Shown here: piece after piece, positions 25,328 to 57,578 of the stretch | Numbering within the stretch: position 1 is the first letter of the stretch | How the letters are laid out: the number at the start of each line of letters is the position of its first letter | NCBI RefSeq assembly: GCF_018128905.1 | Contig: NZ_CP063808.1 | Location: 806,001-870,000, forward strand | Direction of reading: 5' to 3' | DNA from: Streptomyces sp. A2-16 | GTDB taxonomy: Bacteria; Actinomycetota; Actinomycetes; Streptomycetales; Streptomycetaceae | Length of the DNA stretch: 64,000 bases | Notes under the pieces: generated by a model | What the model was told of the DNA's origin: nothing | The model's input: the letters and a program-made list of their open reading frames with translations, nothing else | The model's database searches: none | Position numbers and translations under genes: made by a program

Positions 25328-25409
25328 GGCGGTGTGCCCGAGCGGCCAAAGGGAGCAGACTGTAAATCTGCCGGCTCAGCCTTCCCAGGTTCGAATCCTG
25401 GCGCCGCCA
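25328..25409 (+). tRNA. tRNA-Tyr (anticodon GUA)
   Basis: An 82-base class II tRNA. The acceptor stem GGCGGTG pairs with CGCCGCC. The anticodon loop CTGTAAA sits in the stem GCAGA/TCTGC, a long variable arm follows, and the T-arm is GGTTCGAATCC. CCA is not encoded. The gene is intact at the integrase-proximal end of the element; its 3' part from the anticodon loop is duplicated at 57521. Confidence 0.95.
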
Positions 25410-25417
25410 CGCTGAGA
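25360..25417 (+). repeat. Attachment-site repeat, integrase end
   Basis: 58 bp identical to 57521-57578. It begins in the anticodon loop of tRNA-Tyr (CTGTAAATCTGCC) and ends eight bases past the tRNA. The bases just outside (A before, G after) differ from those at the other copy, which sets the limits exactly. Confidence 0.95.
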
Positions 25418-25583: not shown

Positions 25584-26963
25584 TCACTCGGGCTCGTTCC
25601 ACTCCCGAAGTGCTGCGTCGATCCGGCTGTTCGCGCGCTCGCGCGTCTGGTCAAGGACCTTGGCGTACACCTTGTGCAGTACCGCGATGCTGTGTCCAGC
25701 ACGGCGGGCACATTCCATGGCGTCCACTCCGGAGCTGAGCCAGAACGAGACGCCGGCGTGCCGGAGGTCGTAGGGACGGCGGGCCAGCAGCGAGGACGTT
25801 TCCGCTTGGGTCAGTACGTCATTCCGGGCTTTGGCCCAAACCTCGCCGTAGCCGGTCTCTTGTAGAACGCCGTTGCGGTTCGTCCGGAAGAGGCGGCCAT
25901 CGGGTGCCGTCCCGTGCGTGGAGATGTGTTCTCGCAGGAGGCGGACGAAGTGCGGTGGGATCGGTACCGGACGGGAGTCCTTCTTCGCGCGGGCCTTGAG
26001 GTGGCGCGTCTCGTGCGCCGTGCCGTCGTCGGTCCAACTCCGTCCGGCGCGGACAACTCCCTGTCGAAGGGTGAGCATCCCCCACCCAGTCTCCGGGAGG
26101 TGGCACTGGTTCACCCGCAGTCCAGCGGCCTCGGCTGGACGCATGGCGGCGTAGTACAGGCACCCGAAGAACGCTTCCAGATGCCGTCCACGCGGGCCCT
26201 GCTCACGCACCCCCGCCAGCAGGGCGCGGACCTGGCGAGGGTTGGCGACGCTCTCGGGGTCCACCGCTTCCACCGACTTCGGGGCGGTCCATTTCACGAT
26301 CGTGATCGGGTTGACCGGAATGGTGAAGTACTGCTTTTCCACGGCGAGTCCAAGAACGTCGCTCAGACAGGCCCGCTTGCGCTTCGCGGTGCGCGGTGAT
26401 GCCTCTTTGCCGTCCAGCCGTAGTGACAACGCGTCCAGAGCGAGACGGACGGTTGCTGGATCCTCCATCGCAGTGACCGGCATGGAGTGCTTGGCGATCC
26501 AGGCGAGGGCACGAGCCACATCGTCCGGTGGGGTCTCGTCCCAACGCTTCCGGTTGTACGCCCACCCGTACAGCGCGCGTCGCATGAGCGCGGCATCGGG
26601 CATTCCCGCCTGCGTCTTCACGAGCGCAGGGGTGATGGTGGCCAGCGCATCGGCGTAGTTCTTCCGCGACTTCGCCGGGGCCAGCGCCCACTTGCGGTCG
26701 ACGTACGCGCGGCTGTGCTCGTACCACGTGACGGAACTCTGCTTGGCGCGCAACTCAGATAGGGGGAGGCCCGTCTCCTCATCGAACTGGTCGCCGCGCC
26801 GTACGGCAGACATCAGTTCCGAGCGACGCCCCTCGGCTTGGACCTTCAGTGCGTAGCTTTTGGAGTGCTTGCGCTCCCCGACCAGCCAGCGCACGCGGTA
26901 GGGCTTCGGACGATCTTTGCGAACCTCGATTGCGTAGAGGCGAACGTCGTAGGTCATTGCCAT
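25584..26963 (-). CDS. Tyrosine-family site-specific integrase
   Basis: A 459-residue recombinase that inserts and, with Xis, excises the element at tRNA-Tyr. The N-terminal arm-binding and core-binding regions end near residue 190. Catalytic residues seen are Arg275 (AAMRPAEAAGL), Arg401 in PYDLRHAG, His424 in RAGHS and the nucleophile Tyr433 in HKVYAK. The first His of the usual HxLRH box is Tyr398, a variant common in actinobacterial integrases. It ends 120 bp inside the element. Confidence 0.95.
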   Translation of the reverse strand: MAMTYDVRLYAIEVRKDRPKPYRVRWLVGERKHSKSYALKVQAEGRRSELMSAVRRGDQFDEETGLPLSELRAKQSSVTWYEHSRAYVDRKWALAPAKSRKNYADALATITPALVKTQAGMPDAALMRRALYGWAYNRKRWDETPPDDVARALAWIAKHSMPVTAMEDPATVRLALDALSLRLDGKEASPRTAKRKRACLSDVLGLAVEKQYFTIPVNPITIVKWTAPKSVEAVDPESVANPRQVRALLAGVREQGPRGRHLEAFFGCLYYAAMRPAEAAGLRVNQCHLPETGWGMLTLRQGVVRAGRSWTDDGTAHETRHLKARAKKDSRPVPIPPHFVRLLREHISTHGTAPDGRLFRTNRNGVLQETGYGEVWAKARNDVLTQAETSSLLARRPYDLRHAGVSFWLSSGVDAMECARRAGHSIAVLHKVYAKVLDQTRERANSRIDAALREWNEPE

Positions 26964-27024
26964 AGGAACTCCAGAAGGGCCCGCCGGAAGCGGGCCCCTC
27001 GTGTCTCGTGCGTGCGGGAGATGG

Positions 27025-27213
27025 TCAGGCGGCAGCGTCTTCCATGGACGCCCACCACGCGTCGAGGTCGACGCGGCGGCAGCGGAGCTGGCCGTTGGGC
27101 AGTTTGATCAGCTTCGGGGCCTTGCCCCGTGCGCGCATTCGATAGAAGGCGGCGCGGCTCATGTCGATCTCTTCGAGGACTTCGGAGAGCTTGAGCATCT
27201 TGGGGCGAGCCAT
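27025..27213 (-). CDS. Excisionase / AlpA-type helix-turn-helix protein
   Basis: A 62-residue winged HTH protein: MLKLSEVLEEIDMSRAAFYRMRARG, then KLIKLPNGQLRCRRVDLDAWW. This is the MerR/Xis-like fold used for directionality control. ATG at 27213 has AAGGAG upstream; the frame extends further but without conserved sequence. It lies directly upstream of int on the same strand. Confidence 0.88.
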   Translation of the reverse strand: MARPKMLKLSEVLEEIDMSRAAFYRMRARGKAPKLIKLPNGQLRCRRVDLDAWWASMEDAAA

Positions 27214-27371
27214 TGTTGCGACTCCTTGTCTCGGGCCTTCTGAGGAATCCGCAACATCCGCCACAGCGCAACATTGCTGGTCAGCGGCTTGGTTCTGTGG
27301 CGGATGCCGGTTGTGTTGCGGATAGGTGCCGCCGCGCGGGGCGCGCGGCGGCACCTTGTGGTTGTGGCTGG

Positions 27372-28628: not shown

Positions 28629-28822
28629 GCGGCGTTCCTCCTTTCGGAGTTACGGGTCGTGCACGCGGTGCGGTGGATCGGAGGAAAGAGCTGAAAGGAC
28701 GCCCTTCGGGCGACCTTCTGTCGGCCGCCCAGGCCCGGCCGTGGCGGAGCGGGCGGGGCGTCCTGCGGCCCGTTGAGGGTGGGGATGAGGCAATCCAGGC
28801 GGGGGGATCGGTTGGTGGTCAC
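28625..28822 (-). CDS. Small hypothetical protein coupled to replication genes
   Basis: 65 codons starting GTG. The start overlaps the prim-pol stop by 4 bp and the stop overlaps the DUF3631 start by 4 bp, so translation would be coupled on both sides. The product is basic (GLGGRQKVARRASFQLFPP) with no recognised domain. The exact overlaps are the main reason for calling it; it may serve mainly as a translational bridge. Confidence 0.55.
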   Translation of the reverse strand: MTTNRSPRLDCLIPTLNGPQDAPPAPPRPGLGGRQKVARRASFQLFPPIHRTACTTRNSERRNAA

Positions 28823-29745
28823 GCGACCTCCCGCGGTGTCGCGTTCGCGACGATCCACTCCATGGCGCTGCGGATCGTGGTGCGGCACTCGACAGCCGGC
28901 AGTCCCGTCGACTCTCCCGCCGCCTGGATTGCCTCTTCGACCGTGTGGCGGTCGATGTGGCCCCAGGCGACGAACCGGGCCACCTTGCACGCACTGCGGT
29001 GCAGCGTGTTGTTGCGGCCGTTCGGACCGCCCTCGCGAGCGGCCCGGATGACCGCGCACTCCCGCTCCAGCGCCGTGCGCGCGGCCTTGCTGCCGTCCAG
29101 CACCGGCGCGAGCGTCGGTGGTGTGGCCGGTTTCGCCGGTTCGGTCAGCAGCGCCGCCAGCCACACGGGCAGGGCGGCCACCGGGGCGGCCTCAGCGACC
29201 TCGTAGGCGCCCTGCGGGGTAGTGCTGCCCGCGGCGACGACGTAGCCGCCCCAGGCGCGGGTGTCGATGTGGGGGGCGAGCCGCTTGACGCTGCACTTCA
29301 ACCGCACGCCGCGCGGGGCCGCGAAGTACACATGCCGGCCCCCGCTGGGAGTCCGCACCTCGTAGGTGCACGGATACGGCTGTCCGGCGCGCTCGCAGAG
29401 CCCCTTGAAGGAAGTGGCGCCGTCAGGCGCTCCTTCTTGCACTTTCTCCTTCGGCATGTCCAGATCGACCACCAGGAGGCCCGCCGGTCCGGTCGCGATC
29501 CCCACGTTGTAGGGGTGGTGGGCCCATGTCGCGTGGATCAGGTTGGGGTCAGTGGTGGCTCGCTGTTCGGGGGTGCGGTGCCCGCCGGCGCATCGTCCGG
29601 TGCTGGGGCAGGCGCGCTCGGGATGTCCGGCGGGCCGCTTGGCGCCCGGAACCAGGGGGATGACGGGCCAACCTCGCTCGCCGCACAGCAGTGCCGCGGC
29701 GAGCAGGTGCAGGGTGCTCGGGGACACAGTGAGGGGCTCGTTCAT
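28819..29745 (-). CDS. Bifunctional DNA primase/polymerase (prim-pol) replication protein
   Basis: A 308-residue protein with a prim-pol N-terminal domain: GWPVIPLVPGAKRPAGHP, HPYNVGIATGPAGLLVVDLDMPK (the DxD metal site) and GGRHVYFAAP. It ends in a helical region. Prim-pol proteins act as replication initiators in one AICE class. It leads the replication operon, and the 192-bp upstream region is divergent with the restriction-like gene and should hold its promoter. Confidence 0.87.
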   Translation of the reverse strand: MNEPLTVSPSTLHLLAAALLCGERGWPVIPLVPGAKRPAGHPERACPSTGRCAGGHRTPEQRATTDPNLIHATWAHHPYNVGIATGPAGLLVVDLDMPKEKVQEGAPDGATSFKGLCERAGQPYPCTYEVRTPSGGRHVYFAAPRGVRLKCSVKRLAPHIDTRAWGGYVVAAGSTTPQGAYEVAEAAPVAALPVWLAALLTEPAKPATPPTLAPVLDGSKAARTALERECAVIRAAREGGPNGRNNTLHRSACKVARFVAWGHIDRHTVEEAIQAAGESTGLPAVECRTTIRSAMEWIVANATPREVA

Positions 29746-31047: not shown

Positions 31048-31503
31048 TTAGAACGGCGGTTCAGTGTCCGCTCCGGCAGTGGCCGGGGTACCTGCCGCGG
31101 CCCACGGGTCCTCGCCCCCCGGGCCATTGTGTCCGTTGCGCTTGGCGTTGATGGTCACGGTGGTGAAGCGGACCGAGGCGCCGATGTCGTCGATCTCGAC
31201 GGCGAGGATGGAGCGCTTCTCGTTCTGGTCGGTGGTCCAGTCGTGCTGCCGCATGCGGCCGTTGGCGACGACGCGCGAGCCCTTCTTGAGGCTGTCGGCG
31301 ATGTGCTCGGCAAGCTGGCGCCAGGCGGCGCACCGGTAGAAGGCTGTGGTGCCGTCCTTCCACGCGTTCGTGGTGCGGTCGAAGGTGCGCGGGGTGACGG
31401 CGATGGTGAACTTCGCCAGCGCGGCGCCGCTCTCGGTGAACTTCAGCTCGGGGTCGTCGGTCAGGTTGCCGACGAGGGTGATCGGGGTCTCTCCGAACGA
31501 CAT
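31048..31503 (-). CDS. ssb: Single-stranded DNA-binding protein
   Basis: A 151-residue SSB with one OB fold: ITLVGNLTDDPELKFTESGAALAKFTIAV, TTAFYRCAAWRQLAEHIADSL and KGSRVVANGRMRQHDW. The acidic C-terminal tip ends EPPF rather than the classic DDDIPF. ATG at 31503 has AGGAG upstream. A plasmid-type SSB suits an element that replicates autonomously or moves as single-stranded DNA. Confidence 0.93.
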   Translation of the reverse strand: MSFGETPITLVGNLTDDPELKFTESGAALAKFTIAVTPRTFDRTTNAWKDGTTAFYRCAAWRQLAEHIADSLKKGSRVVANGRMRQHDWTTDQNEKRSILAVEIDDIGASVRFTTVTINAKRNGHNGPGGEDPWAAAGTPATAGADTEPPF

Positions 31504-31522
31504 GCTGTCTCCTGGTTTCGGG

Positions 31523-31861
31523 CTAGAAGGGGGCTTGGGTGCTGCGGTCGTTCGCGGTCCACGGCTCGCTGCGGCGGGAGCCCACCAGGAGCCCGGCCGC
31601 GAGCATGTCCTCATCGCCGATCCCGGTGCAGGGACGACGCTGTTCGCTGCCGTCGGGCAGGAGCCACAAGGTCATGCCGTCCTGGTCGCAGACCGTGCAG
31701 TCGGCGTGAGTGCCGCGGTGCTCAGCGGTGATGTAGAGGCGGGTCCGGGTGCGGTCGCGGGTGGGGTAGCGGCGTATGGAGGTGGCGTCGACGCTGCCGA
31801 GGACGGCTTGTGCGACGCGGGGGACGTCCGCGGTTTCGCAGATGATCCGGATCTCGAACAC
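31523..31861 (-). CDS. Hypothetical protein in the transfer region
   Basis: 112 residues from GTG at 31861, with AAAGGAG upstream. It starts VFEIRIICETADVPRVAQAV and has a TRLYITAEHR strand. A CTVCDQDGMTLWLLPDG segment carries one CxxC. No known domain. It is compact and soluble, located 19 bp ahead of ssb on the same strand. Confidence 0.6.
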   Translation of the reverse strand: MFEIRIICETADVPRVAQAVLGSVDATSIRRYPTRDRTRTRLYITAEHRGTHADCTVCDQDGMTLWLLPDGSEQRRPCTGIGDEDMLAAGLLVGSRRSEPWTANDRSTQAPF

Positions 31862-31878
31862 CGTGCTCCTTTCGCAGG

Positions 31879-32100
31879 TCAGCGCTTGGAGCTGAAGAGC
31901 TTGAGGGCGATGCCGCCGACGCCTATGGGCCCGGCGGTGTGGGCGATGAAGACGGCCGTGTGGGCGGCGTAGTCGAGCAGCCAGGCCAGGGCGGCGGCCA
32001 GTCCCCATCCGCCGGCGACGACCGCGCCGGCGATCGCGAACGGGTACAGGAAGCGCCGCAACGGAAAGTCGGCACCGTGGGTGCCGTGGATGTGCGCCAA
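31879..32100 (-). CDS. Small membrane protein in the transfer region
   Basis: 73 residues from TTG at 32100, which has AGGAG eight bases upstream; the frame is open to 32214. It shows LRRFLYPFAIAGAVVAGGWGLAAALAWLL and AVFIAHTAGPIGVGGIALKL, two membrane segments, ending in a basic FSSKR. No family recognised. It may be a minor component of the transfer machinery. Confidence 0.55.
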   Translation of the reverse strand: MAHIHGTHGADFPLRRFLYPFAIAGAVVAGGWGLAAALAWLLDYAAHTAVFIAHTAGPIGVGGIALKLFSSKR

Positions 32101-32153
32101 GACGGGATCTCCTTGTCTCTCGGGGGCGGTGTGGGCGGCCGGGTGGCCTGTCC

Positions 32154-32189
32154 GGCCCTCGCTCCCGCCGGAGCGGGGGAGCGAGGGCC
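32154..32189 (-). terminator. GC-rich hairpin
   Basis: A 13-bp perfect stem (GGCCCTCGCTCCC and its complement) with a 10-base loop, downstream of the VirB4-like gene and upstream of the small membrane protein. It probably attenuates or ends the transfer transcript together with the next hairpin. Confidence 0.6.
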
Positions 32190-32219
32190 AGGCGGAGCAT
32201 CTGGGTGGGTGCATGCGAA

Positions 32220-32250
32220 AGGGCCCACCCCCTGCCGGGGTGCGGGCCCT
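32220..32250 (-). terminator. Hairpin downstream of the VirB4-like ATPase gene
   Basis: AGGGCCC-ACCCC pairs with GGGGT-GGGCCCT across a 2-base bulge, with loop CTGCC. It lies 20 bp beyond the stop of the ATPase gene in the direction of transcription. Confidence 0.65.
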
Positions 32251-32270
32251 GAGTGATGAAGGAACGCGTG

Positions 32271-34436
32271 TCAGAGATCGGAGGGGAGCTTGGTTCCGGT
32301 CTCTGCGTCGTACGCGTCGCCGGTCGGGGACAGGCGGATGGTCCGGGACTGTGCTCGGGTGCCGGTCTTCCAGGTCTTGCCGCCGACTGAAACGCGGACG
32401 GTGATGTCTGCGAGGGGGTCGGTGACCGACAGCGCGATCTCGGGCGCCTTGGGGTACCAGCGGTCATTGCCCCGCGTGGTCTGTGCGGTCTTGCCGGAGG
32501 CGTCGATGCGCAGGTACTTCGCGTTGCGGTCGAAGTACGAGCGCAGTTCCAGGTAGACGCGGTCCCGGTCGCTGTTCCAGTGGGCGACCAGGTCGGCGTT
32601 GACGCCGTCGACTTGGAGGGCGGCTCCCGAGCGGCCTTTGTAGGCGGCGGCCTTCTCCTGACGGGCCTGCTGTTCCTGGTCGTCGGCCGCGTACTGGTAG
32701 ACGCCCGCGATCGTGATGCCCAGGGCTGCGATCGCGGCGACGTAGGGCCAGGCCCGCCGACCCGTCCGCGGCGGCGGGTCGGCCTGGGGTTGGGGGGCGT
32801 ACGGCTGGGGGCCGCGGTGCCATTGCGGGGACGTGCTGTCGCCGGTCTTCTCGAACCATGCAGCGTCGTCGGTGCCCATGCGGGCGACGGTAGCGCGCAG
32901 TTGGCCGGCTTGTCGGCGCTCTCCGCGAAGGTCGGCCACCTGTGCCCGGGTCTCCCACCAGGCAAGCGCTTGGGGGGAGTTGAGGCCGTGGGTGGTGATG
33001 TCCTCGCGCTCGTAGAGGGCGGCCAGCTGAGCGGCTTCGTCGCACCGGCCGGCGAGCGCGGCTTGGAGGACGCGTTCGTGCCGGGTCAGGGTGCCGATGA
33101 CGTTGGGCGGCAGGCTCTTCCAGTCCCAGCTGTCGTCGGCCGCGGTGAACGGCGCGTACAGGTCTTCGCTTGGGTCGACGGCTGCGGTGCCCTCACTCGA
33201 CTTCGTGACCGGCTCTGCCGCGGTGGTGGCGGTGTCCTGCTCGACAGCCAGCTCCTGGACTAGGGCCTGCTGCGCCTTGCGGCGCTGCGAGGACGTGTCC
33301 GTGAGAGCGCGCTCCTCCTCTGTGAGGAGGGTCTGGACGACGTCGACGTAGTCGGGACCGACCTTCCACACCGCCTGGCCGGGTTCAAGGGTGGGGATAA
33401 TGTCGATGAGCGCCTGAGGCAGTCCGAGCAGGGCGCCGACGATCGCGGCTTCTTCCGGTCCCAGGCGTCCGACGTGGGCGATCTCGCACAGCCGGGCCAG
33501 ATCCTGCGCCTTGCCCTCTCCGAGGTCGGACAGGGTGTGCATCACTACGTCCAGCGACAGCGCGGCCTTGCGGGAGTTCTTCAGCAACCGCTGAATGAGT
33601 TCGCTGGTGGCCGGTGACAGCAGGATCTGCCACGCCTCTTCGAGGACCAGGTGGCGGTGCACGGCGGTGGACTGGCGCAGCCACACATGTTCAGCCCAGC
33701 AGGAGATCGCGGCCATCAGCGACGGGATCGCCGGGGAGTTGCGGTCCAGCCGACTGAAGTCGAAGGACAGGACGGGCAGGTCGGTCTCGGGGAGGCTGGC
33801 GTCCTGGCCGTCGAACAGGCCGGTCAGGGAGCCTTCGGTGTAGCGGGACAGGGCGATCGCCGGGCCCTCGCCCCACTCGGTCAGCTTGGCGGCCGGCCAC
33901 CGGCCGTCCTCCGGCGCCACCAGCGCATCCACCAGCCCGTTCAGCGAGGTCGCTTTCGGGTGGGCGAGAGCGTGCTGAAGAGCGTGGGCGGCCTGGTGTG
34001 TCAGTGCGCCGGGCTCGACAGCGGCGATCAGGGAGCGCACCAGCTGCTCGCGGACCTCGCGCGGGAACAGATCGCTGCACGGGTTGAGGGTGAAGGAACC
34101 GGCCTCAATGACCCGGCCGCCAAGCGAGCGGGTCAGGGGCGCCCATTCGCCGCTCGCGCTGTCCTCGCCGAAGGAGTCGATGACAACGGCCTGGTGGGCG
34201 TTGTCAAGGATCTCCCGCCGGATGCGGGTCTTGGCCGTCGTCGATTTGCCGGAGCCCAGTCCCCCCAGCGCGAGCGAGTTCGTGGACGGCAGGATCGCGG
34301 CGTCGGTCAGGACGGGCGAGAGGTGGAAGGCGCGTCCGTCCAGCAGGGAGCGGCCGATCGGGATGCCGGGGAAGGCCGTGTTGGAGGCGATGAGGGGTGC
34401 GGTGATCGCGGCGTGGTTGGAGGGCAGGCGGATCAC
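32271..34436 (-). CDS. VirB4-like conjugation ATPase with C-terminal membrane-anchored domain
   Basis: 721 residues from GTG at 34436, overlapping the upstream gene by 4 bp. Walker A is GLGSGKST (59-66) and Walker B is HLVLEEAW (262-269), with the VirB4/TrbE-like KNSRKAALSLDVVMHT after it. Residues 440-520 are helical. One membrane segment lies at about 563-580, and a beta-rich domain of about 140 residues follows, which would be extracytoplasmic if the ATPase is cytoplasmic. This C-terminal extension is not usual in VirB4. It would power assembly or substrate transport of a type IV-like channel. Confidence 0.8.
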   Translation of the reverse strand: MIRLPSNHAAITAPLIASNTAFPGIPIGRSLLDGRAFHLSPVLTDAAILPSTNSLALGGLGSGKSTTAKTRIRREILDNAHQAVVIDSFGEDSASGEWAPLTRSLGGRVIEAGSFTLNPCSDLFPREVREQLVRSLIAAVEPGALTHQAAHALQHALAHPKATSLNGLVDALVAPEDGRWPAAKLTEWGEGPAIALSRYTEGSLTGLFDGQDASLPETDLPVLSFDFSRLDRNSPAIPSLMAAISCWAEHVWLRQSTAVHRHLVLEEAWQILLSPATSELIQRLLKNSRKAALSLDVVMHTLSDLGEGKAQDLARLCEIAHVGRLGPEEAAIVGALLGLPQALIDIIPTLEPGQAVWKVGPDYVDVVQTLLTEEERALTDTSSQRRKAQQALVQELAVEQDTATTAAEPVTKSSEGTAAVDPSEDLYAPFTAADDSWDWKSLPPNVIGTLTRHERVLQAALAGRCDEAAQLAALYEREDITTHGLNSPQALAWWETRAQVADLRGERRQAGQLRATVARMGTDDAAWFEKTGDSTSPQWHRGPQPYAPQPQADPPPRTGRRAWPYVAAIAALGITIAGVYQYAADDQEQQARQEKAAAYKGRSGAALQVDGVNADLVAHWNSDRDRVYLELRSYFDRNAKYLRIDASGKTAQTTRGNDRWYPKAPEIALSVTDPLADITVRVSVGGKTWKTGTRAQSRTIRLSPTGDAYDAETGTKLPSDL

Positions 34437-35506
34437 AGGATCGCCCCTTTCCGGGTGGATGCGCCGTGCGGGGTGGTCATCACGTGGGCGCGGTGCTGCT
34501 GGCCGGGCAGCCAGTCGAGCCGGATGCGGTGCCGGTCGGCGGCAAGGGAGGCTTGCCAGCGGGCCTCGGTGACGGACTCGGGGCTGTCGCCCCACACGGT
34601 GAGGTAGCCGTCGATGTCCACGAGGGTGGCGCCCTGCACGAGGGCGCCGTGGGTGGTGCCGCTGGCGATCTGGTGGGCGTCCTGCTTGACCTTGTCGGCA
34701 GTGAACGCCTCGCTCGCCGCGGCCTGCCACTTCGCCGACCTGCGGGACTGGCCCGCGGGCAGCGGCCGGTACAGCACCGCGAAAGAGCGCTCTGCCTGGT
34801 CGTCAAGCAGGAACTTGCCCATCAGGTCGCCGCCGGTCTCGTCCGGCCAGCCGGTGATGCGGGTGGTGGCCGCGTACCGTCCGTCCTCCAATCCGACCCA
34901 CCCGGGGCCGCGGTCGGCGACGGAGGGCAGCGGCTCGGGGTCGATGGGGGTGAGCGCTCCGAGGCGGGCGAACTCGCCCTCCAGCGTGGCCAGCAGCCGG
35001 TCCGGCTGTCCTACCAGCCCTTTAGGGACGTGGACGGAGATGGTTTGGGTGTGGTCGGTGAACTCGCCGACGGCGGCGTGGTGGGTGACGTGGACCTGGA
35101 CGCCCGCGTGGCGGGCCTGCCCGCCGGCGAACGTCAGCGCCCGGGAGAACGCCTCGTGGAAGGCGGTGCGACGCTGGTCGTCCTGCATGGTGCCGTGGTC
35201 CGGGTACAGCGCCCATGTCGCCGTGGCGCCGGGCTGGGCTGTCATCGATACGGGCACAGCACGCTCGCGCAGGTGCCGGTATCCGACCGTCGCCCACCGG
35301 GCCACCGAGCGCGGTCCGGGCGCGAGGTTGAGCAGGGCCCCGGCGGCGCCGACCGCTCCGAACGTCCACAGCGGGGGCGGGGAGATCATCGCGGACGCGA
35401 GGACGGCGCTCCCGACACCGGCGTTCACCCGGGTCAGCAGGGTCTCGGCCGGGCTCAGTCCGCGCTGGAGGGCGGGGATGCGGTAGCCGGGTGTCAGGGA
35501 GTACAT
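34433..35506 (-). CDS. VirB4 N-terminal-like membrane protein (SCO6880-like)
   Basis: 357 residues. One or two hydrophobic segments lie at residues 28-62 (VGSAVLASAMISPPPLWTFG), followed by a soluble domain with HEAFSRALTFAGGQARHAGVQVHV and RSFAVLYRPLP. The second half, ending in the DIDGYLTVWGDSPESVTEA region, resembles the substrate-binding N-domain that precedes the ATPase in VirB4-like proteins. With the 4-bp overlap to the ATPase gene, the pair looks like one VirB4 split in two. Assignment rests on layout and partial resemblance. Confidence 0.65.
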   Translation of the reverse strand: MYSLTPGYRIPALQRGLSPAETLLTRVNAGVGSAVLASAMISPPPLWTFGAVGAAGALLNLAPGPRSVARWATVGYRHLRERAVPVSMTAQPGATATWALYPDHGTMQDDQRRTAFHEAFSRALTFAGGQARHAGVQVHVTHHAAVGEFTDHTQTISVHVPKGLVGQPDRLLATLEGEFARLGALTPIDPEPLPSVADRGPGWVGLEDGRYAATTRITGWPDETGGDLMGKFLLDDQAERSFAVLYRPLPAGQSRRSAKWQAAASEAFTADKVKQDAHQIASGTTHGALVQGATLVDIDGYLTVWGDSPESVTEARWQASLAADRHRIRLDWLPGQQHRAHVMTTPHGASTRKGAIL

Positions 35507-35610
35507 GGGGCAGAACCTCCGGAAGCTTGGGGCGAACCGCCCCGGGCCCGGCGCTCCGCCCCTTTCCGCGATCGGGCGGGAGGGGAGAACGCCGGGCCCG
35601 GAGGGGCTCG

Positions 35611-36798
35611 TTACGGGGTGGAAGAGCCGCCGGGTGCGGGCGGTGAAGCCGCCGACCGGCTGCGGCGTGCGGCGGTTCGGGCTGTGGAGCGGGAGTCAGC
35701 TGTTTGCTCCCGACGGCGCGCGATGGCGGACTCTGCGGTGAACCGTCCCGGCCGCTTTGGCTGCCGGACGCCGTAGGCGGCGAGCAGGACCCCGCGGTCC
35801 TGGTGCACGGCCCGGCCGGGGGTGTTGACGGTGCGCCTGCGGTGCGGGGTGTTCTCCTGCTCGTAGACGTCCGGGGCGCCGGCCCGCACGACCGCGTGGG
35901 CCGCCCGGTTGTCGGTGCGCCGTTCCACGAAGGTCCGGGCGCCGCGCGCGATCTGGGGTCCGAAGTACGGGATCCCGTGGAAGATCATGCGCAGCATCAG
36001 GGCGTCCGCGGCGAGCAGGAGAACGGTGTCGACCACGAGCGAGCCGTGGGCGAGGGTGACGAATGGGGAGACCAGCAGCAGGGCGAACGGGCAGAACATC
36101 AGCCCGAGCAGGCGCATCGCCCACGTTTTCACGGCCGTCGTGTCGCCCCCGCGTGCCAGCGAGGCCAGCACGAGCGGGGCCATGCAGACGAACGCGAGGA
36201 TGCCGAGGTTGCGGGTGATGAACACCAGTGTGGCGGGGGCCAGAGCAACCACGAGTGCGGAGACGGTCAGCAGCTTCGCGAGCGGGACGTCTTTGTCCGC
36301 GCCGTGCTGGAGGTCATGGAGGATGGCCTTGAACAGGGTCGCCTCGTTGCTGTCGAACGCGGCCGTGAAAGCGGTGCTTACGGCCTTGTTCAGCATCATC
36401 ACCGCCCCCGGGACCGTCGCCATGCCGGCGACGGCCGCCAGGGTCCAGCCCGTCGAGGCGCCCATCTGGCGCAGGCGCGGGGCGCCCTGCCAGGCGGTCA
36501 GGCCGCACACGACGACCACGCACGCGAAGATGGCGACGGCCAGGTGCTGACCCAGCCACAGGAACGGCTCGTACAGGGCGCTGTCCGCGCTCTTCGGCGC
36601 CCACGCGTCCTTCGGCGCGACCAACGCGTTGATCTTCTTGATGATGCTCTCTGCGAAGTCCCGGACGTTGTCGGAGGCACCGTCTGTGATGCCGCCGCCA
36701 GTGCTACTGTCGCCGCCTGCGCGACGCCGTGCGTCTTCCTCGCAGAGGCCCCGCATCGGTCCAGCGATCAGACTGCACTTGTTCTCCTTGTCTGCCAT
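35611..36798 (-). CDS. VirB6/TrbL-like polytopic membrane protein
   Basis: 395 residues from ATG at 36798 (MADKENKCSLIAGPMRGLC). A soluble N-terminus is followed by about six helices, including LAVAIFACVVVVCGLTAWQG, LLTVSALVVALAPATLVFI and LGILAFVCMAPLVLASLARG. A conserved-looking loop NEATLFKAILHDLQ and a basic, Arg-rich cytoplasmic tail are also present. This matches the inner-membrane channel subunit of Gram-positive type IV systems. It lies five bases after the pilin-like gene. The family call is by topology and context. Confidence 0.68.
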   Translation of the reverse strand: MADKENKCSLIAGPMRGLCEEDARRRAGGDSSTGGGITDGASDNVRDFAESIIKKINALVAPKDAWAPKSADSALYEPFLWLGQHLAVAIFACVVVVCGLTAWQGAPRLRQMGASTGWTLAAVAGMATVPGAVMMLNKAVSTAFTAAFDSNEATLFKAILHDLQHGADKDVPLAKLLTVSALVVALAPATLVFITRNLGILAFVCMAPLVLASLARGGDTTAVKTWAMRLLGLMFCPFALLLVSPFVTLAHGSLVVDTVLLLAADALMLRMIFHGIPYFGPQIARGARTFVERRTDNRAAHAVVRAGAPDVYEQENTPHRRRTVNTPGRAVHQDRGVLLAAYGVRQPKRPGRFTAESAIARRREQTADSRSTARTAARRSRSAASPPAPGGSSTP

Positions 36799-36803
36799 GG
36801 GCG

Positions 36804-37079
36804 TCAGCCCTTGGCCTGGGTGACGGTGGAGAAGAGAGTGTCGCCGTAGAGGGCCAGCACGACGGCAACGGCCAGCGTGCCGACCGCGGCAACCCCCTTG
36901 CGCAGGGCGCCCTTGGGGTCGCTGGACGTCTTCAACAGCATGCCGAGGGCGATGACGGCGATGACGGCGGCAATGCCCTTGGTGACCAGGCCGGCGCCGG
37001 TCAGGCTGATGCTGTCGAAGAAGTCCTTGAACCCGGTGGACATGTCGACGGGTTTGGCGAGGAGGAGGGACTTGTTCAT
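36804..37079 (-). CDS. Small VirB2/pilin-like membrane protein
   Basis: 91 residues with two hydrophobic segments (LVTKGIAAVIAVIALGMLL and GVAAVGTLAVAVVLALYG) separated by a short charged loop KTSSDPKGALRKG. The layout is that of VirB2/TrbC-type pilins or the equivalent small proteins in Gram-positive systems. It sits three bases after the wall-hydrolase gene and directly ahead of the VirB6-like gene. Confidence 0.6.
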   Translation of the reverse strand: MNKSLLLAKPVDMSTGFKDFFDSISLTGAGLVTKGIAAVIAVIALGMLLKTSSDPKGALRKGVAAVGTLAVAVVLALYGDTLFSTVTQAKG

Positions 37080-37082
37080 GGG

Positions 37083-38075
37083 TCAGATCTCCTGGTTCTG
37101 CTGGGGGGTGGGGCGGGCGAGGGCGTACAGGTCGGTCATGGTGTCCAGGGGGTCGATGCGGACCTTCGTGCCGGGGCGGGGGGCGTCGAGCATGTAGCCG
37201 CCGCCGATGTAGAGGCCGACGTGGTGGATTCCCGCGGCGGTCTTTCCGTAGAAGACGAGATCGCCGGGGAGCGCGTCTTCCGGCTTTACCGGTTCGGAAG
37301 CCGCGTACTGCTGTGCCGCGGTGCGGGGCAGGGATATTCCGGATTTCGCGTAGGCGTAGAGCGTGAGCCCCGAGCAGTCGAAGCCGGTGATTTTGGCACC
37401 GGAGCGGCCCATCGGCGAGCAACAGTTTCCGGTGCTGGGACCGTTCGCATTGCCGCCGCCCCATGAATACGGCGTACCGAGCATCGCGTACGCCGCATTG
37501 AGAGCAGTGACGCCCTGATCCGCGGTTGCGGTCTTTCCGTTGGAGGGTTGTTTGGCGAGTGCCTCGATGGACTGGACGTAGTTCTGTGTCTCCTTGTACG
37601 GGGGAATGCCCCCGTATTTGCGGACGGCTCCGCTTCCGGCGTTGTAGGCGGCGAGCATGTTGGACTGCTGGTCGCCGGGAACGTCCTTGACGTCCTTGGC
37701 GATTGAGCAGAGGTATTCGGCCGCCGACGGGATTGCATCGGCGGGATCCCACACGTCGCGTTCACCGTCGCCGTTTCCGTCGATGCCGTGGGCTTCCCAC
37801 GTGGACGGCATGAACTGGGCGATGCCTTCCGCGCCGACCTGCGAGCGCGCTTTCGGGTTGAAATTCGATTCCTGGGTGAGAAGCGCGGCGAGCAGGTTCG
37901 GCGTGACCGCCGGACAGGTGCTGCCCGCGGCCTGGATCAGGGCTTTGTACTGGCTCGGCACGGACAGGCTGAGCAGCGTTCCCGCGGGATCGTCGCTGGC
38001 TGCTTGCAGGCAAGCGGCCACGGCGACGGCCGCGGTCGCGCCTATGCCGATCGTGACGGCTGTAGAGGCACGCAA
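37083..38075 (-). CDS. Bifunctional SLT transglycosylase / NlpC-P60 peptidase
   Basis: 330 residues from TTG at 38075, preceded by GGAGGAACCTCG. An ATG at 38132 is in frame but overlaps a repeat array. It has an N-terminal membrane anchor or signal (TAVTIGIGATAAVAVAACL). The SLT domain has the catalytic Glu69 in LTQESNFNP and AEGIAQFMPSTW. The NlpC/P60 domain has Cys234 in GFDCSGLTLYAYAKSG and His285 in HHVGLYIGGG. The same two-domain layout is found in CwlT of ICEBs1, which opens the wall for conjugation. Confidence 0.88.
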   Translation of the reverse strand: MRASTAVTIGIGATAAVAVAACLQAASDDPAGTLLSLSVPSQYKALIQAAGSTCPAVTPNLLAALLTQESNFNPKARSQVGAEGIAQFMPSTWEAHGIDGNGDGERDVWDPADAIPSAAEYLCSIAKDVKDVPGDQQSNMLAAYNAGSGAVRKYGGIPPYKETQNYVQSIEALAKQPSNGKTATADQGVTALNAAYAMLGTPYSWGGGNANGPSTGNCCSPMGRSGAKITGFDCSGLTLYAYAKSGISLPRTAAQQYAASEPVKPEDALPGDLVFYGKTAAGIHHVGLYIGGGYMLDAPRPGTKVRIDPLDTMTDLYALARPTPQQNQEI

Positions 38076-38123
38076 CGAGGTTCCTCCCTCCTTCCTGGGT
38101 TTGTGATCGTCTGTGCTGGTCAG

Positions 38124-38242
38124 CACCGCCATGCAGGACCGTCAGGGCACCGCCACACCTCGGCCGGGCACCGCCATGCCACCGCCATGGGGTGGCGGTT
38201 GTGGCGGTGCGGTGGCGGTGGGCGGGCGGTGCCCGTGGCGGT
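38124..38242. repeat. Octamer CACCGCCA array in both orientations; possible clt
   Basis: CACCGCCA occurs at 38124, 38148, 38169 and 38180. Its complement TGGCGGTG occurs at 38202 and 38213, with seven-of-eight matches at 38193 and 38235. The central pair forms a 7-bp hairpin (38181-38199). The array fills the gap between the FtsK/TraB-like gene and the wall-hydrolase gene. Streptomyces TraB proteins recognise repeated octamers in clt loci near traB, so this is a reasonable clt candidate. Confidence 0.6.
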
Positions 38243-39942
38243 CAGGTGGTGGCCATGGCGGCGGCGGTGAGGTCGGTCAGGCGGTAGCCGCGGCCTTGCG
38301 TGGTCTTGCGCGCCGGAACCCCGTCCAGAAGACGCGAGAGCTGCTTTCCGCGTTCGGTCGGATCGGTTTCCGTGATCCCGAGGGCCGGGGCCAGGTCGGG
38401 CGTGGGCATGAAGTCCACTCCGGTGTTCCGCATCAGCTCGATTGCCTGCTTCAGCGGAGAATCCGGGATCGCTGCTTCGCGGCGGGCGTGGACCTCATCG
38501 ACCACGTCCCAGATGACCTCATCCGCGAAATTGAACCCCCGGAGCAGGGTGGACGTACCGTTGGCGAACAGCACGGCCTGTCCCTTGACATCCGGGTCCA
38601 GAAGCGCCGGGTGGATCGGGGCGACCGTATCGAAGTACGAATCCCCGAGGGCCACTTTCGCGCTGCCCTCCGATGCCACGTAGAGGCACATTCGGTACAG
38701 GAATTGATCCCGTACCTTCACCGGGATCGCGTCCTTTGCCGGGCGCTGGGTCAGCATCACGGTGGCGATTCCGGATTCCAGGGCTTTCGAGACCAGGGAC
38801 CGGGACTTGTCCTCTACCCGGCGGACCTGCTCTTTCGATTCCTTGGTTCCGTTGTCGGTGTAGAAGTCGGCGGCCTCATCGACGATGAAGAACACCGGTT
38901 TGAAGACCGGTGCCGGCTGCCGGTTGCGGATGGCGTCCTGGAGTTGTGTATACCGGCGGTCCACGCGGGAGTTCAGCTCATCGAGCATGTCTTCCAGGAC
39001 GGCGGGATCGTCGGACGCCTCGTAACGGACGGCGAGTTTCTCGAACTTGGTCAGCCCGCACAGTTTCCCGTCGAGCAGATACAGATCGAACTCGCCGTAC
39101 GCGATGAGCAGACAGGTGATGAGGCCGTTGACCAGCGTCGTCTTGCCCATCTGCGTCATGCCGGCGATGAGCAGGGACGCCTTGTCGAACGTCGGCACCC
39201 CAGCGAGCCGGCCGGTGACCTCGTGTCCGAGGGGAACCCCCGCGAACGACTGGATCTCCTGCCGGGTCGGTGCGGGGAACGCGGTGCTGAACGGGGGCTC
39301 GTTCAGCACGAGCAGCCGCACATGGCGCTCGCTGCGGCGGGATGTCTCCAGCTTCAGGTGCAGGCGGGTGACGCCGAACATCGACGCGATCCGGTCGAGC
39401 CGTTTCGCGACGTCGTCGTGCGTGCGCCCCTCCGGCATCAGGAAGTCGTAGACGGTGCCGATGCCCGGCAGCGTCTCGATGGTGGCGTCCCCGGCGCGGA
39501 CCTGTTCGTTCCTGGCGATCGCCCCGACCCTGCTGAGCAGCATGGTCAGTTGCGGGTGGCTCTCGCTCCCGCCCGGGGACGTTCCGGCAGGCAATTGCGT
39601 CTCACCTGCGGGACCACCGGGAGTCGGCCCCGCTGCGGCGGCCTGTTCAGGCGTTCCCTGCCATACGGCGGGGGCTTCCTGCGTGAAAGCCACCTGCGGG
39701 GCTCCGGTCTTCGGCTGCGGGCGGTGCGCCCACAGGCGCGGGATGCCCGTGCGGATCCTCCAGGCCAGATAGCCCAGCGCAACCAGCGTCCCGGCGGTGC
39801 CCAGGACCGTGACCGGCCAGGACAGGCCCAACTTGTCCTTGATGGCGGCCAGGGCACCAAAGGCAATCGCCAGGCCGCCGATCGCGCCGGTCATCTGCCC
39901 GTAGGTGTCCTCGCCCTTGCTCTGCTGTGGCTTCCTTCCCAC
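38242..39942 (-). CDS. FtsK/SpoIIIE-type DNA translocase (TraB-like)
   Basis: 566 residues. Two membrane segments lie near the N-terminus (about 17-35 and 43-62), followed by a Pro/Ala-rich linker. The motor domain has Walker A GMTQMGKT (261-268) and Walker B VFFIVDEA (350-357), then SKALESGIATVMLTQRPAKDAIP, typical of FtsK-like translocases. The C-terminal 60 residues look like a small winged helix that could read DNA repeats. In Streptomyces elements such a protein alone can move double-stranded DNA between hyphae. Confidence 0.9.
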   Translation of the reverse strand: MGRKPQQSKGEDTYGQMTGAIGGLAIAFGALAAIKDKLGLSWPVTVLGTAGTLVALGYLAWRIRTGIPRLWAHRPQPKTGAPQVAFTQEAPAVWQGTPEQAAAAGPTPGGPAGETQLPAGTSPGGSESHPQLTMLLSRVGAIARNEQVRAGDATIETLPGIGTVYDFLMPEGRTHDDVAKRLDRIASMFGVTRLHLKLETSRRSERHVRLLVLNEPPFSTAFPAPTRQEIQSFAGVPLGHEVTGRLAGVPTFDKASLLIAGMTQMGKTTLVNGLITCLLIAYGEFDLYLLDGKLCGLTKFEKLAVRYEASDDPAVLEDMLDELNSRVDRRYTQLQDAIRNRQPAPVFKPVFFIVDEAADFYTDNGTKESKEQVRRVEDKSRSLVSKALESGIATVMLTQRPAKDAIPVKVRDQFLYRMCLYVASEGSAKVALGDSYFDTVAPIHPALLDPDVKGQAVLFANGTSTLLRGFNFADEVIWDVVDEVHARREAAIPDSPLKQAIELMRNTGVDFMPTPDLAPALGITETDPTERGKQLSRLLDGVPARKTTQGRGYRLTDLTAAAMATT

Positions 39943-40110
39943 ACCCCTCCGTTCTTCACGATCTCGCGCAAGCGGGCACGGCCCGCCCGCACTTGGTCTG
40001 GTGGGTTTCCGTGAGGCTCGCCGGGTCTGCGCCGGGTCTGCGAACGTGCCGCTCGCCGGGGCTCACCGGGTCTGCTTCACTGGTGTCGACTGCTTCCGGC
40101 AGTCGCAACG

Positions 40111-40141
40111 ACGGCCAGCCCACTAGTCCTGGGCTGGCCGT
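40111..40141 (-). terminator. Strong hairpin upstream of the translocase gene
   Basis: A perfect 12-bp stem ACGGCCAGCCCA/TGGGCTGGCCGT with a 7-base loop, 25 bp beyond the stop of the DUF2637-like gene. Next to it (40010-40080) CCGGGTCTGC repeats three times. It probably ends the upstream operon, so the translocase may have its own promoter in 39943-40110. Confidence 0.8.
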
Positions 40142-40165
40142 CATTGGTGTGTGCCGGACGCTGCT

Positions 40166-41197
40166 TTAGGGCTGTGCGTCCTCCGCGTCGATCAGCGCGG
40201 CGTAGGCCTTGCGCACCCGCTCTTCCTTCGCGGAGAAGCCGGCCGCGCGGTACGCGGCCAGGGCCTTGCGGTACGAGAGCGGGGGGTTCTCGGAGTGGCG
40301 CAGCCACCGCAGCACGACGGTGAGCTGTTCCTCGCTCAGCGGCTCGCCTGGCTCGGGGGTGTCGACGCCGGCCACGGCCGCCACCCGAGCGAGCGCCGAC
40401 CAGTCGAGCGGGGTGTGTCCCTCGCCCTGGGAAGCGGTCAGTTCGGGTACCGGGGACACGGGGCTGACCTGGGGGGACACAGGGGACACACCCGGGGACA
40501 CGGCGGGGGACACACCCCCGTCCGACCACTGGCCCAACACCCGGGCGAGATCCTCGTCCGAGAACAGCGCCGGTACCGCCTGCGGGACGTCGGCCACCGG
40601 GTGTTCCGCGGTGAGCTTGGTCAGCTCCTCGGCTGCCTCGTGGCGCACCTTCTGTGCCTTGCCGCGGGCCTTGTGCTCCTCGCGCTCCAGGACGGCCGCG
40701 GTGGTCTGGCGGTCGGTCTTGGCGCGGGTGACCGCGCGGCCGATGGCGACCTGGTCCCGCGTCGCGCTGCGCACGGCGTCGATCTGCGCCTGTGCCTCGC
40801 GGGAGATTCGGGTGGCGTCCCGTTCCACGGCCATGATGAGCGTGGCCTTGGCGGCGGCCGGGACCACGGCGCCGATGACCGCGACGACCGCGGTGGCGTA
40901 CAGCAGGCCGTGGGTGAACAGCACTCCGACCGACGTCACGAGGAACAGCCACCCTAGGGCGGTGGGCAGCGTTGCCTTGGAGCCCTGACGGCGGTGGGCG
41001 GTCTCCATGGCCAGCGCGTACAGCCACACCGCGTCGTAGATCCCGGCCACGGTGTAGGCGAGCGGCGCCGGCGCCTGGTGGGAGAGGATCTCCCCCACCG
41101 CGTAGACCGTCCAGCCCAGCGAGAGGCCGGTCAGTCCGGCCGGCAGACTCCAATGCACCGTCCTGCGCAGCACGGCTCGCACTTCCTTCCAGTCCAT
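40166..41197 (-). CDS. DUF2637-like membrane protein, spread/transfer associated
   Basis: 343 residues. Four N-terminal membrane segments (VHWSLPAGLTGLSLGWTVYAV, YTVAGIYDAVWLYALAM, LGWLFLVTSVGVLFTHGLLY and AVVAVIGAVVPAAAKATLIM) are followed by a coiled-coil-like region. A Val/Ser/Pro-repeat linker (SPGVSPVSPQVSPVSP) and a helical C-terminal domain with LTVVLRWLRHSENPPLSYRKAL come next. This layout is common in Streptomyces mobile elements and associated with transfer or spread. Precise role unknown. Confidence 0.75.
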   Translation of the reverse strand: MDWKEVRAVLRRTVHWSLPAGLTGLSLGWTVYAVGEILSHQAPAPLAYTVAGIYDAVWLYALAMETAHRRQGSKATLPTALGWLFLVTSVGVLFTHGLLYATAVVAVIGAVVPAAAKATLIMAVERDATRISREAQAQIDAVRSATRDQVAIGRAVTRAKTDRQTTAAVLEREEHKARGKAQKVRHEAAEELTKLTAEHPVADVPQAVPALFSDEDLARVLGQWSDGGVSPAVSPGVSPVSPQVSPVSPVPELTASQGEGHTPLDWSALARVAAVAGVDTPEPGEPLSEEQLTVVLRWLRHSENPPLSYRKALAAYRAAGFSAKEERVRKAYAALIDAEDAQP

Positions 41198-41201
41198 GTG
41201 A

Positions 41202-41582
41202 TCACTCCTTGTTCTGGTCGTCGGGGTAGGCGCAGGGGACGCAGACCCCGAGGGATGAGGGGATGACGTATCCGGCGTCCTTGCGGCACTGCGGGCAGGT
41301 CCGGCGTGCTCGCATCGCGCACGCCAGGGCCCGCCGCTTGGCCGGGGTCATCGGCCGGACCGGCTTGGCTTTGTCGAGCCGGTACAGGTAGGCGACCAGC
41401 GGTCCACGCCGGTAGCGGGGCCGGAGTATCTGGCCGGCGATCGGCTGGCCGCCGGGGCGCAATCCGCGGGCCCGTAACTGCCGTCTGGTCGCCAGTCCGT
41501 CGGGCGCGTACCGCCACGGCCAGGTGGGGATGCCGAGGCGGGCGCCGTTCGGGTCATAGCACTTGCCCCAGGTGACGGACAT
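41202..41582 (-). CDS. RRQRL-type zinc-binding protein of actinomycete elements
   Basis: 126 residues. It has the conserved ATRRQLRARGLRPGGQPI and RPMTPAKRRALACAMRARRTCPQC. The C-terminal zinc ribbon has CPQC and CVPC pairs. Proteins of this layout recur in Streptomyces integrative elements next to transfer genes; no activity is known. It begins one base inside the previous stop (TGATG) and lies four bases ahead of the DUF2637-like gene. Confidence 0.78.
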   Translation of the reverse strand: MSVTWGKCYDPNGARLGIPTWPWRYAPDGLATRRQLRARGLRPGGQPIAGQILRPRYRRGPLVAYLYRLDKAKPVRPMTPAKRRALACAMRARRTCPQCRKDAGYVIPSSLGVCVPCAYPDDQNKE

Positions 41583-42554: not shown

Positions 42555-43246
42555 ATCAGGTGCCTGCTCGCGGTCCCTCGGGTCGCACCCCGGGGGACCG
42601 CTCAGGGCCGGACTTTCCGGCTCCCCCCGCCCCGCCCATGCAGCCAGCGCACCAGGTGCGGGCCGGACGGGCGAGGAGAGGCAACCGGCCGCAGCGCAAG
42701 CCGCCGCGAGACCAGGAAGAGGCGGACCGGGGAGGGCTTCAAGCGCCGCCGACCGGTCCACCCGGCAGCGCCCGTGTATGTCGTCGGCTCACGCCGACCT
42801 CCCTCAGGTAGCAGGGATGCGGCTTCACCGGCGCTCCGTTGCTACGGACTACCGGTCCCGAGCCGGGTAATCGGGCGCGTCATCGTCACTGCTCTGACGC
42901 CAGCAGGGCGGCATGCACCAGGTGGCACCCCAAAGGGATGTTCTCCAGAGCCGATGCAGGTGGCTGCGCCGCCGACGACATCACCCGGTCGTCTCGGGGG
43001 CGGTCTTCTCATCCCGCCACGTGCGTTGGGGCCTGCTGTACTTCCCCACACCCGCGATGGGGTGGCGCCTGCCAGGCGCGTAGGGGGAGAGCTTCGTACA
43101 TCACGGCGGTTTGCCACCCGGACCCTCGCCCTAGGCACCTGCCGTGACCGCCGCTCTCGCGTCAGCCCCGCACGATCACTCTTCAGTTCTCAAGGAACGG
43201 CCTGCTTGGTGCACACGCCGGATCTGCCCCATCCGGGGCCCGTTCG
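42555..43246. other. Gene-poor control region of the element
   Basis: About 700 bp without a supportable gene, between the transfer operon and the regulatory genes. It contains small inverted repeats, for example GTCGGC/GCCGAC near 42785 and GCGCCT/AGGCGC near 43066. An open frame crosses it on the plus strand, but its composition is not protein-like. It is a likely place for promoters of the leftward transfer operon. Confidence 0.4.
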
Positions 43247-49676: not shown

Positions 49677-49736
49677 CCTGACCTGACCTGACCTGACCTG
49701 ACCTGACCTGACCTGACCTGACCTGACCTGACCTGT
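49677..49736. repeat. Pentanucleotide repeat (CCTGA)11 plus CCTGT
   Basis: Eleven perfect CCTGA units followed by CCTGT. Read on the minus strand it lies 138 bp ahead of the GTG 49539 start and inside the in-frame extension, where it would encode SGQVR repeats. Simple repeats of this length are unusual in Streptomyces. Confidence 0.95.
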
Positions 49737-53462: not shown

Positions 53463-53750
53463 ATGGAGATTGAACTGGCGGATGCTGTCGCGGCGTTGCG
53501 TGATGAGCTGCTGGAGGCAGCCGCGCGTGGTGTCGGGCAGGACGTGGAGTTCAAGGTTGGTGCCGTGGAGCTGGAGTTCGCCGTGGAGTTGCGCGAGAGC
53601 GCGGAGGCCAAGGCCGGCTTTAAGGCATGGGTGGTGAGCGCGGAGGCACGGGGCGCCGTGGAGCAGGGGCGGACGCACCGGGTGACGATTTCGCTGCAGC
53701 CGCGGCAGCGTGGCGGAGGCGACTGGACGGTGGGCCGAGCTCGGGGCTGA
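53463..53750 (+). CDS. Trypco2-domain protein
   Basis: 95 residues: MEIELADAVAALRDELLEAA, then KVGAVELEFAVELRES and VVSAEARGAVEQGRTHRVTI. This is the trypsin-co-occurring domain 2, known from bacterial conflict systems where it partners a trypsin-like protease fused to an NTPase. AGGAGG lies eight bases ahead of the ATG. It ends 22 bp before the protease gene, consistent with a two-gene module. Confidence 0.82.
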   Translation: MEIELADAVAALRDELLEAAARGVGQDVEFKVGAVELEFAVELRESAEAKAGFKAWVVSAEARGAVEQGRTHRVTISLQPRQRGGGDWTVGRARG

Positions 53751-53772
53751 GCCGGCTGGCGGGGGATGCGGC

Positions 53773-57520: not shown

Positions 57521-57578
57521 CTGTAAATCTGCCGGCTCAGCCTTCCCAGGTTCGAATCCTGGCGCCGCCACGCTGAGA
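57521..57578 (+). repeat. Attachment-site repeat, distal end (partial tRNA-Tyr)
   Basis: 58 bp identical to 25360-25417. It starts at the anticodon loop, and the 5' half of the tRNA is absent: the preceding sequence (GGAGTAGCCCG) cannot form the D-arm or acceptor. It is therefore not a functional tRNA. Confidence 0.95.

What the first reader, a model, noticed from the sequence alone, without database searches (positions are those of the whole stretch)
31048..39942. Type IV-like secretion genes next to an FtsK/TraB translocase in one AICE, without a relaxase
Known Streptomyces AICEs usually transfer double-stranded DNA with a single TraB-type motor. Here a VirB4-like protein (split over two genes), a VirB6-like protein, a pilin-like protein, an SLT-NlpC wall hydrolase of CwlT type and an SSB accompany the FtsK-like motor. 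No relaxase signature (three-His HUH or MobA/MobC type) was recognised in any frame I examined. This suggests a hybrid route: double-stranded transfer through a type IV-like envelope complex, or an unknown relaxase.
Basis: partly seen in the sequence, partly recalled or inferred. Interest (0 to 1): 0.8.

Follow-up and report, generated by a model that had tools for sequence, protein, structure and literature searches.

The report
FtsK-driven, relaxase-free type IV transfer machine
A 32-kb mobile element in a Streptomyces chromosome carries six transfer genes that put an FtsK-type DNA motor next to predicted parts of a type IV secretion channel, with no recognised relaxase; they match in order six genes of the plasmid SLP2, very likely those reported to be needed for its spread, and would likely move double-stranded DNA through an envelope channel.

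The parts
25360..25417 (+). attL: 58-bp exact repeat, 3' end of tRNA-Tyr (25328-25410)
57521..57578 (+). attR: second copy of the 58-bp repeat; right end of the element
25584..26963 (-). tyrosine integrase (PF00589 E 9.2e-6, 26.0 bits, just under the cut-off 27.1); 72% identical to the integrase beside tRNA-Tyr in another genome (L083)
26954..27274 (-). small ORF beside int, likely excisionase; relatives at 52-76% beside int in L078, L082 and L083
27372..28628 (-). RepAM-type replication protein (DUF3631, PF12307 1.3e-59)
28819..29745 (-). Prim-Pol primase/polymerase (PF09250 1.1e-43)
31048..31614 (-). SSB (PF00436 1.7e-27); the SSB-like part begins near residue 40
32271..34436 (-). VirB4 ATPase half, 721 aa, Walker A GGLGSGKST; NF045971 5.4e-6, AAA_10 1.4e-4 (both below curated cut-offs); hydrophobic span near residue 567 and a further C-terminal part
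   Evidence: most calls used one codon too many (to 34439)
34433..35506 (-). VirB4 N-half with N-terminal helices (VirB3/PrgI-like, inferred); SCO6880-like (9.2e-7, below cut-off); model matches R388 TrwK/VirB4 residues 36-374
35611..36798 (-). VirB6-like polytopic membrane protein (label unproven); homologue of SLP2 pQC542.3c
36804..37079 (-). 91-aa protein with hydrophobic spans, VirB2/pilin-like by position only
37083..38132 (-). SLT + NlpC/P60 cell-wall hydrolase (VirB1/CwlT-like)
38242..39942 (-). FtsK/TraB-type motor, 566 aa, N-terminal membrane anchor; family profile matches FtsK (2.8e-14) and TcpA (1.4e-11) in the PDB
39980..40158 (-). conserved cis element: long hairpin with paired changes, inverted repeat, three GCAGACCCGG-like repeats
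40166..41197 (-). SpdB2-like membrane protein (the SLP2 counterpart is annotated spdB2-like)
41202..41582 (-). RRQRL-motif zinc-binding protein, shared with SLP2-type plasmids

Best explanation
The six genes 32271-39942 form an SLP2-type transfer module on an AICE, in which an FtsK/TraB-type motor most likely docks by its membrane anchor onto a predicted, reduced type IV secretion channel and would pump double-stranded DNA through it without a relaxase. Shown: gene order and homology to SLP2, a VirB4 in two halves (N-half by fold of a model), a wall hydrolase, no recognised relaxase, dN/dS well under 1. Inferred: after excision and replication by Int, RepAM, Prim-Pol and SSB, FtsK binds the circular element and translocates it; the split VirB4, the VirB6-like and the small membrane protein build the membrane pore; the SLT-NlpC enzyme opens the wall; the SpdB2-like protein helps spread in the recipient mycelium. 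Motor and channel behave as separable units: the motor stays with the element's backbone, the channel can be exchanged with plasmids.
Against: Strand state of the transferred DNA is untested. No VirB8 was recognised, although the review says that all known MPF_FATA elements encode one. The N-half model is of middling quality (pLDDT 64) and the Foldseek superpositions are loose (TM 0.41-0.50 by query). The VirB6-like model is poor and matches nothing in the PDB; PF19590 (TrbL_3), listed for many relatives, was not reproduced by direct scans. The ATPase half is below every curated cut-off and its profile found no VirB4 in the PDB. Four of 26 plasmids are typed mobilizable, one with a MOBF relaxase. 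Chromosomal relatives, cmdA-F, act in sporulation and did not replace the SLP2 genes in transfer.
Confidence: 0.62

Rival explanations
1. Ordinary single-stranded type IV conjugation with a relaxase that no profile recognises, or one supplied by the host or another plasmid; the FtsK protein acts as a TcpA-type coupling protein, and the hairpin 39980-40158 is the origin of transfer.
For: TcpA is among the profile's hits; the element has SSB and Prim-Pol; the conserved hairpin with paired changes resembles an origin; 4 of 26 plasmids are typed mobilizable, one MOBF.
Against: No MOB family in the element; 22 of 26 plasmids non-mobilizable; SSB and Prim-Pol also occur in an AICE relative without the channel (L077); the cis element also precedes quite different genes.
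Confidence: 0.2
2. The VirB-like genes do not form a DNA channel but remodel wall and membrane at the hyphal tip or septum, as the cmdA-F cluster affects sporulation; FtsK alone moves the DNA.
For: cmdB/C/D homologues affect aerial growth and sporulation (PMC2782261); AICE relatives L077 and L078 carry a different, likely single-motor module and none of the six genes.
Against: Six SLP2 genes are reported as required for transfer and the Cmd cluster could not replace them; the FtsK anchor is kept when the motor is exchanged.
Confidence: 0.12
3. A decayed or inactive transfer region.
For: Nothing direct; no transfer has been measured for this element.
Against: All six frames open, dN/dS 0.19-0.56, exact att repeats.
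Confidence: 0.04

Closest known systems
Streptomyces lividans linear plasmid SLP2 transfer region (SLP2.19-23 / pQC542.1c-6c)
   Same: Same six genes in the same order, plus spdB2-like, RRQRL and the cis element
   Different: SLP2 is a linear plasmid with an annotated replicative helicase and ParAB; here the module sits on an integrating element with RepAM/Prim-Pol and a tRNA-Tyr att site
AICEs (pSAM2, SLP1, pMEA300 type)
   Same: Int, RepAM (PF12307), Prim-Pol (PF09250), FtsK (PF01580), tRNA att site
   Different: AICEs are described as needing only a single Tra/TraB and no genuine T4SS (PMC3218068 section 8)
Gram-positive T4SS of the pCF10/pIP501/Tn916/ICEBs1/pCW3 kind
   Same: VirB4, VirB6-like, SLT-NlpC hydrolase, FtsK/TcpA-like motor; gene order B6-B3-B4 as in pCF10
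   Different: VirB4 split, its N-half predicted to carry VirB3-like helices; no VirB8 and no relaxase recognised
cmdA-F (SCO4126-4131) and SCO6878-6881 of S. coelicolor
   Same: Three SLP2 genes are reported to resemble cmdB/C/D; ATPase homologues, mostly near 36% identity, were found in 83 of 100 relatives searched
   Different: Chromosomal; affects sporulation and antibiotics; did not replace SLP2 genes in transfer

Membership tests
AICE (criteria of Ghinet et al. 2011) | tyrosine or serine integrase | tested here: met
   PF00589 E 9.2e-6 (26.0 bits, cut-off 27.1); homologue beside tRNA-Tyr in L083
AICE (criteria of Ghinet et al. 2011) | RepSA, RepAM (PF12307) or Prim-Pol (PF09250) | tested here: met
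   PF12307 1.3e-59; PF09250 1.1e-43
AICE (criteria of Ghinet et al. 2011) | FtsK/SpoIIIE transfer protein (PF01580) | tested here: met
   2.5e-12, 47.2 bits, cut-off 24
AICE (criteria of Ghinet et al. 2011) | flanking att repeats | tested here: met
   58-bp exact repeat at tRNA-Tyr
AICE (criteria of Ghinet et al. 2011) | double-stranded transfer by one Tra protein | not testable with these tools
   needs mating experiments
T4SS-type ICE (criteria of Ghinet et al. 2011) | relaxase | tested here: not met
   no MOB family in the Pfam scans
T4SS-type ICE (criteria of Ghinet et al. 2011) | VirB4-like protein (AAA_10) | tested here: inconclusive
   AAA_10 21.5 bits, cut-off 27.5; N-half matches TrwK/VirB4 by fold
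T4SS-type ICE (criteria of Ghinet et al. 2011) | VirD4-type coupling protein (PF02534) | tested here: not met
   no PF02534 match listed; the motor is FtsK/TcpA-like
SLP2-type transfer module | six genes in order ftsK to ATPase | tested here: met
SLP2-type transfer module | genes required for transfer | not testable with these tools
   reported for SLP2 only
Tn916/ICEBs1 type (MOBT + TcpA) | Rep_trans (MOBT) relaxase | tested here: not met
   no PF02486 match in the Pfam scans
Tn916/ICEBs1 type (MOBT + TcpA) | VirB8 homologue | tested here: inconclusive
   no Pfam match; the C-terminal part of the ATPase half was not folded

The most novel reading that the evidence does not exclude
A separate class of conjugation machine: a double-stranded DNA pump of the FtsK family plugged by its membrane anchor into a stripped-down VirB3/VirB4/VirB6 channel, with no relaxase, no VirB8 and no nicking. 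Pump and channel evolve as interchangeable cartridges, so that AICEs and linear plasmids trade channels while keeping their own pumps.
Probability: 0.45. Interest if true: 0.82.

Novelty: new variant of a known kind. Interest (0 to 1): 0.62.

Why it matters
AICEs are described as moving DNA with one protein and no type IV system, and type IV conjugation as using a relaxase. This module has predicted channel parts without a recognised relaxase, falls between the two standard search schemes, and gives a model (SLP2 in S. lividans) in which one can ask directly whether a type IV channel can pass double-stranded DNA. The natural motor exchange points to the FtsK membrane anchor as the docking piece.

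Tried and rejected
Relaxase: Pfam scan of 97 further open frames of 100 aa or more, wholly inside the element, gave 18 families at E <= 0.01, none of MOB type; shorter frames and frames crossing the ends were not scanned. For SLP2 plus NZ_CP109477, 49 proteins (not all of their annotated genes) gave 63 families of which only 25 were shown, none of MOB type among those; this does not settle SLP2; both are typed non-mobilizable.

VirB6: structure model of low quality (pTM 0.36), no PDB match at E <= 0.001; PF19590 not reproduced. ATPase profile against PDB: nothing useful; VirB4 N-half sequence profile: nothing.

Cis element as an FtsK binding site (clt): considered and weakened. Part of it, searched as a pattern, occurs in 19 of 295 genomes, 21 sites, reversed-pattern control 0; by my comparison of coordinates 15 of the 21 sites lie 4.5-5.7 kb upstream of the VirB4 N-half gene, and 15 of its 16 hits have one. 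Of the other six, five were fetched and precede other genes (L074-L078); the site in G107 was not looked at. The repeats are largely kept in motor-swapped L059 and partly decayed in L041. A terminator or leader RNA is as likely. No Rfam match there. Core found in 28 of 33 loci; 27 were aligned, L057 (shortened gene copies) dropped and the start of L045 moved by hand. The structure counted was derived from the same sequences, so the slid control favours it.

Trees: L041, L050, L053 and L057 were left out; some proteins (such as the FtsK of L083) are partial.

Papers: passages only of PMC2782261, PMC12857230, PMC9513070, PMC3583192, PMC4170104, PMC9195940; passages and sections 8 and 9 of PMC3218068; all others only as search listings. 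Xu et al. 2006 was not held; the SLP2 requirement rests on its citation in PMC2782261. No paper joining this module to AICEs turned up in the listings; that is no proof of absence. The meaning of MOB-suite's 'mobilizable', and which proteins of pCF10, Tn916 or ICEBs1 resemble ours beyond, are recalled.
Full report
What is there. The window lies in a 9.8-Mb genome. Two of its genus-mates, G017 and G035, hold contigs that equal in length, and in the place of the ATPase, contigs of S. glaucescens and S. mashuensis (L042, L044), so the genus is Streptomyces. A 58-bp exact repeat at 25360-25417 and 57521-57578, beginning inside tRNA-Tyr 25328-25410, bounds a 32.2-kb element. Left end: integrase, likely excisionase, RepAM (DUF3631), Prim-Pol, SSB. 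Then the transfer operon 39942-32271 on the minus strand, preceded by an SpdB2-like gene and an RRQRL zinc-binding gene. Right part: regulators and cargo.

The transfer module is that of SLP2. FtsK is 61% and the ATPase half 63% identical to SLP2 proteins; SLP2 holds spdB2-like, ftsK, SLT/C40 hydrolase, a 90-aa protein, a 420-aa membrane protein, the VirB4 N-half and the ATPase in the same order. In the SLP2 record the N-half aligns in two pieces. [quoted passage not shown] The UniRef name of the 420-aa protein is PQC542.3c, third of six; the assignment of the other five names is my inference from gene order.

The motor. The FtsK family profile hits FtsK (2.8e-14) and TcpA (1.4e-11) in the PDB, then EccC-type chains, and no TrwB/VirD4 at E <= 0.1.

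No relaxase. No Pfam MOB family in the element. Of the 26 plasmid records with the VirB4 N-half, 22 are typed non-mobilizable and 4 mobilizable; one of the latter carries MOBF; the other three were not opened.

Distribution. A scan of named genomes with the ATPase alignment gave 31 loci; 29 have matches to all six genes. With the window that makes seven AICE-type backbones. A homologue of the window's integrase was seen in four of the seven (window, L030, L082, L083); in the others no other integrase was looked for. The one in L083 lies beside a tRNA-Tyr; L029, L030 and L035 have tRNA-Thr, -Arg and -Pro beyond the replication genes, but att repeats were not tested there. In a sample of 295 genus members, 15 genomes hold 16 copies of the VirB4 N-half at E <= 1e-60. 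Two AICE relatives (L077: RepAM 91%, RRQRL 83%; L078: RRQRL 66%, integrase 51%) carry instead a 522-574-aa and a 704-705-aa protein, the latter with a P-loop and only weak FtsK/HerA scores, and none of the six genes. So related backbones travel with either kind of transfer module.

Mosaic structure. Trees of five module proteins (33-36 sequences): the seven AICE FtsKs form one clade with support 1.0, while the window's SLT, VirB6-like, N-half and ATPase proteins group with S. canus plasmids L087/L088 with support 0.999-1.0; the AICE proteins do not form one clade in those four trees. Along the DNA, identity to AICE relatives L081 and L035 is higher down to 38051; below it identity to the plasmids is higher in most 200-bp windows, but not at 36851-37050, 35651-35850 and 32271-32450, and hardly at 37451-37650 and 33051-33250. 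Conversely, in L041 (draft contig) and L059 (plasmid) the membrane anchor is typical (70-75%) but residues 150-566 are foreign (19-31%); the two foreign motors are 90-99% alike and their anchors 73%, so this may be one exchange that later spread. Both observations fit a motor that must match the channel through its anchor only.

Cis element. Between spdB2-like and ftsK lies a hairpin with 9 of 24 pairs changed on both sides across 27 sequences; 97.4% of cells paired against 90.8% in shuffles and 28.6-44.3% when slid by 1-3 columns, followed by at least one GCAGACCCGG-like site in 29 of 30 loci, three in most. It has no Rfam match. It also precedes other genes, so its role is open.

Mechanism and verdict. 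The anatomy is firm; a double-stranded substrate is inferred from the FtsK motor, the missing relaxase and the AICE setting. The T4SS review treats TraB as a coupling protein working without other known T4SS subunits (PMC12857230 passages), and Ghinet et al. describe AICEs as not requiring a genuine T4SS (PMC3218068 section 8). This module is a variant outside both descriptions.

Noticed in passing
39980-40158 and L026:17562-17737, L074-L078: Conserved covarying hairpin with inverted and direct repeats after SpdB2-like or DUF2637 genes in several kinds of Streptomyces element; no Rfam match.
   Followed up: partly
42872-42987 (-): gntR-DTE RNA (RF02989, 123.8 bits, E 2.3e-25) inside the element.
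   Followed up: no
53710-57438: 1242-aa protein with STAND NTPase, TPR and weak trypsin-like matches at the right end of the element, possibly a defence gene; a trypsin-co-occurring domain (PF19631, 8.5e-29) matched one of the 97 other element frames.
   Followed up: no
L041:4547-6103 and L059:8447-10051: FtsK proteins with the SLP2-type membrane anchor joined to a foreign motor.
   Followed up: partly
[not shown]
   Followed up: no
49677-49735: Six tandem copies of a 10-bp unit (CAGGTCAGG-type) inside the element.
   Followed up: no
L082: Next to one G231 AICE lie more AICE-like genes (Prim-Pol 51%, RRQRL 68%, FtsK 25%), possibly a second element in tandem.
   Followed up: no
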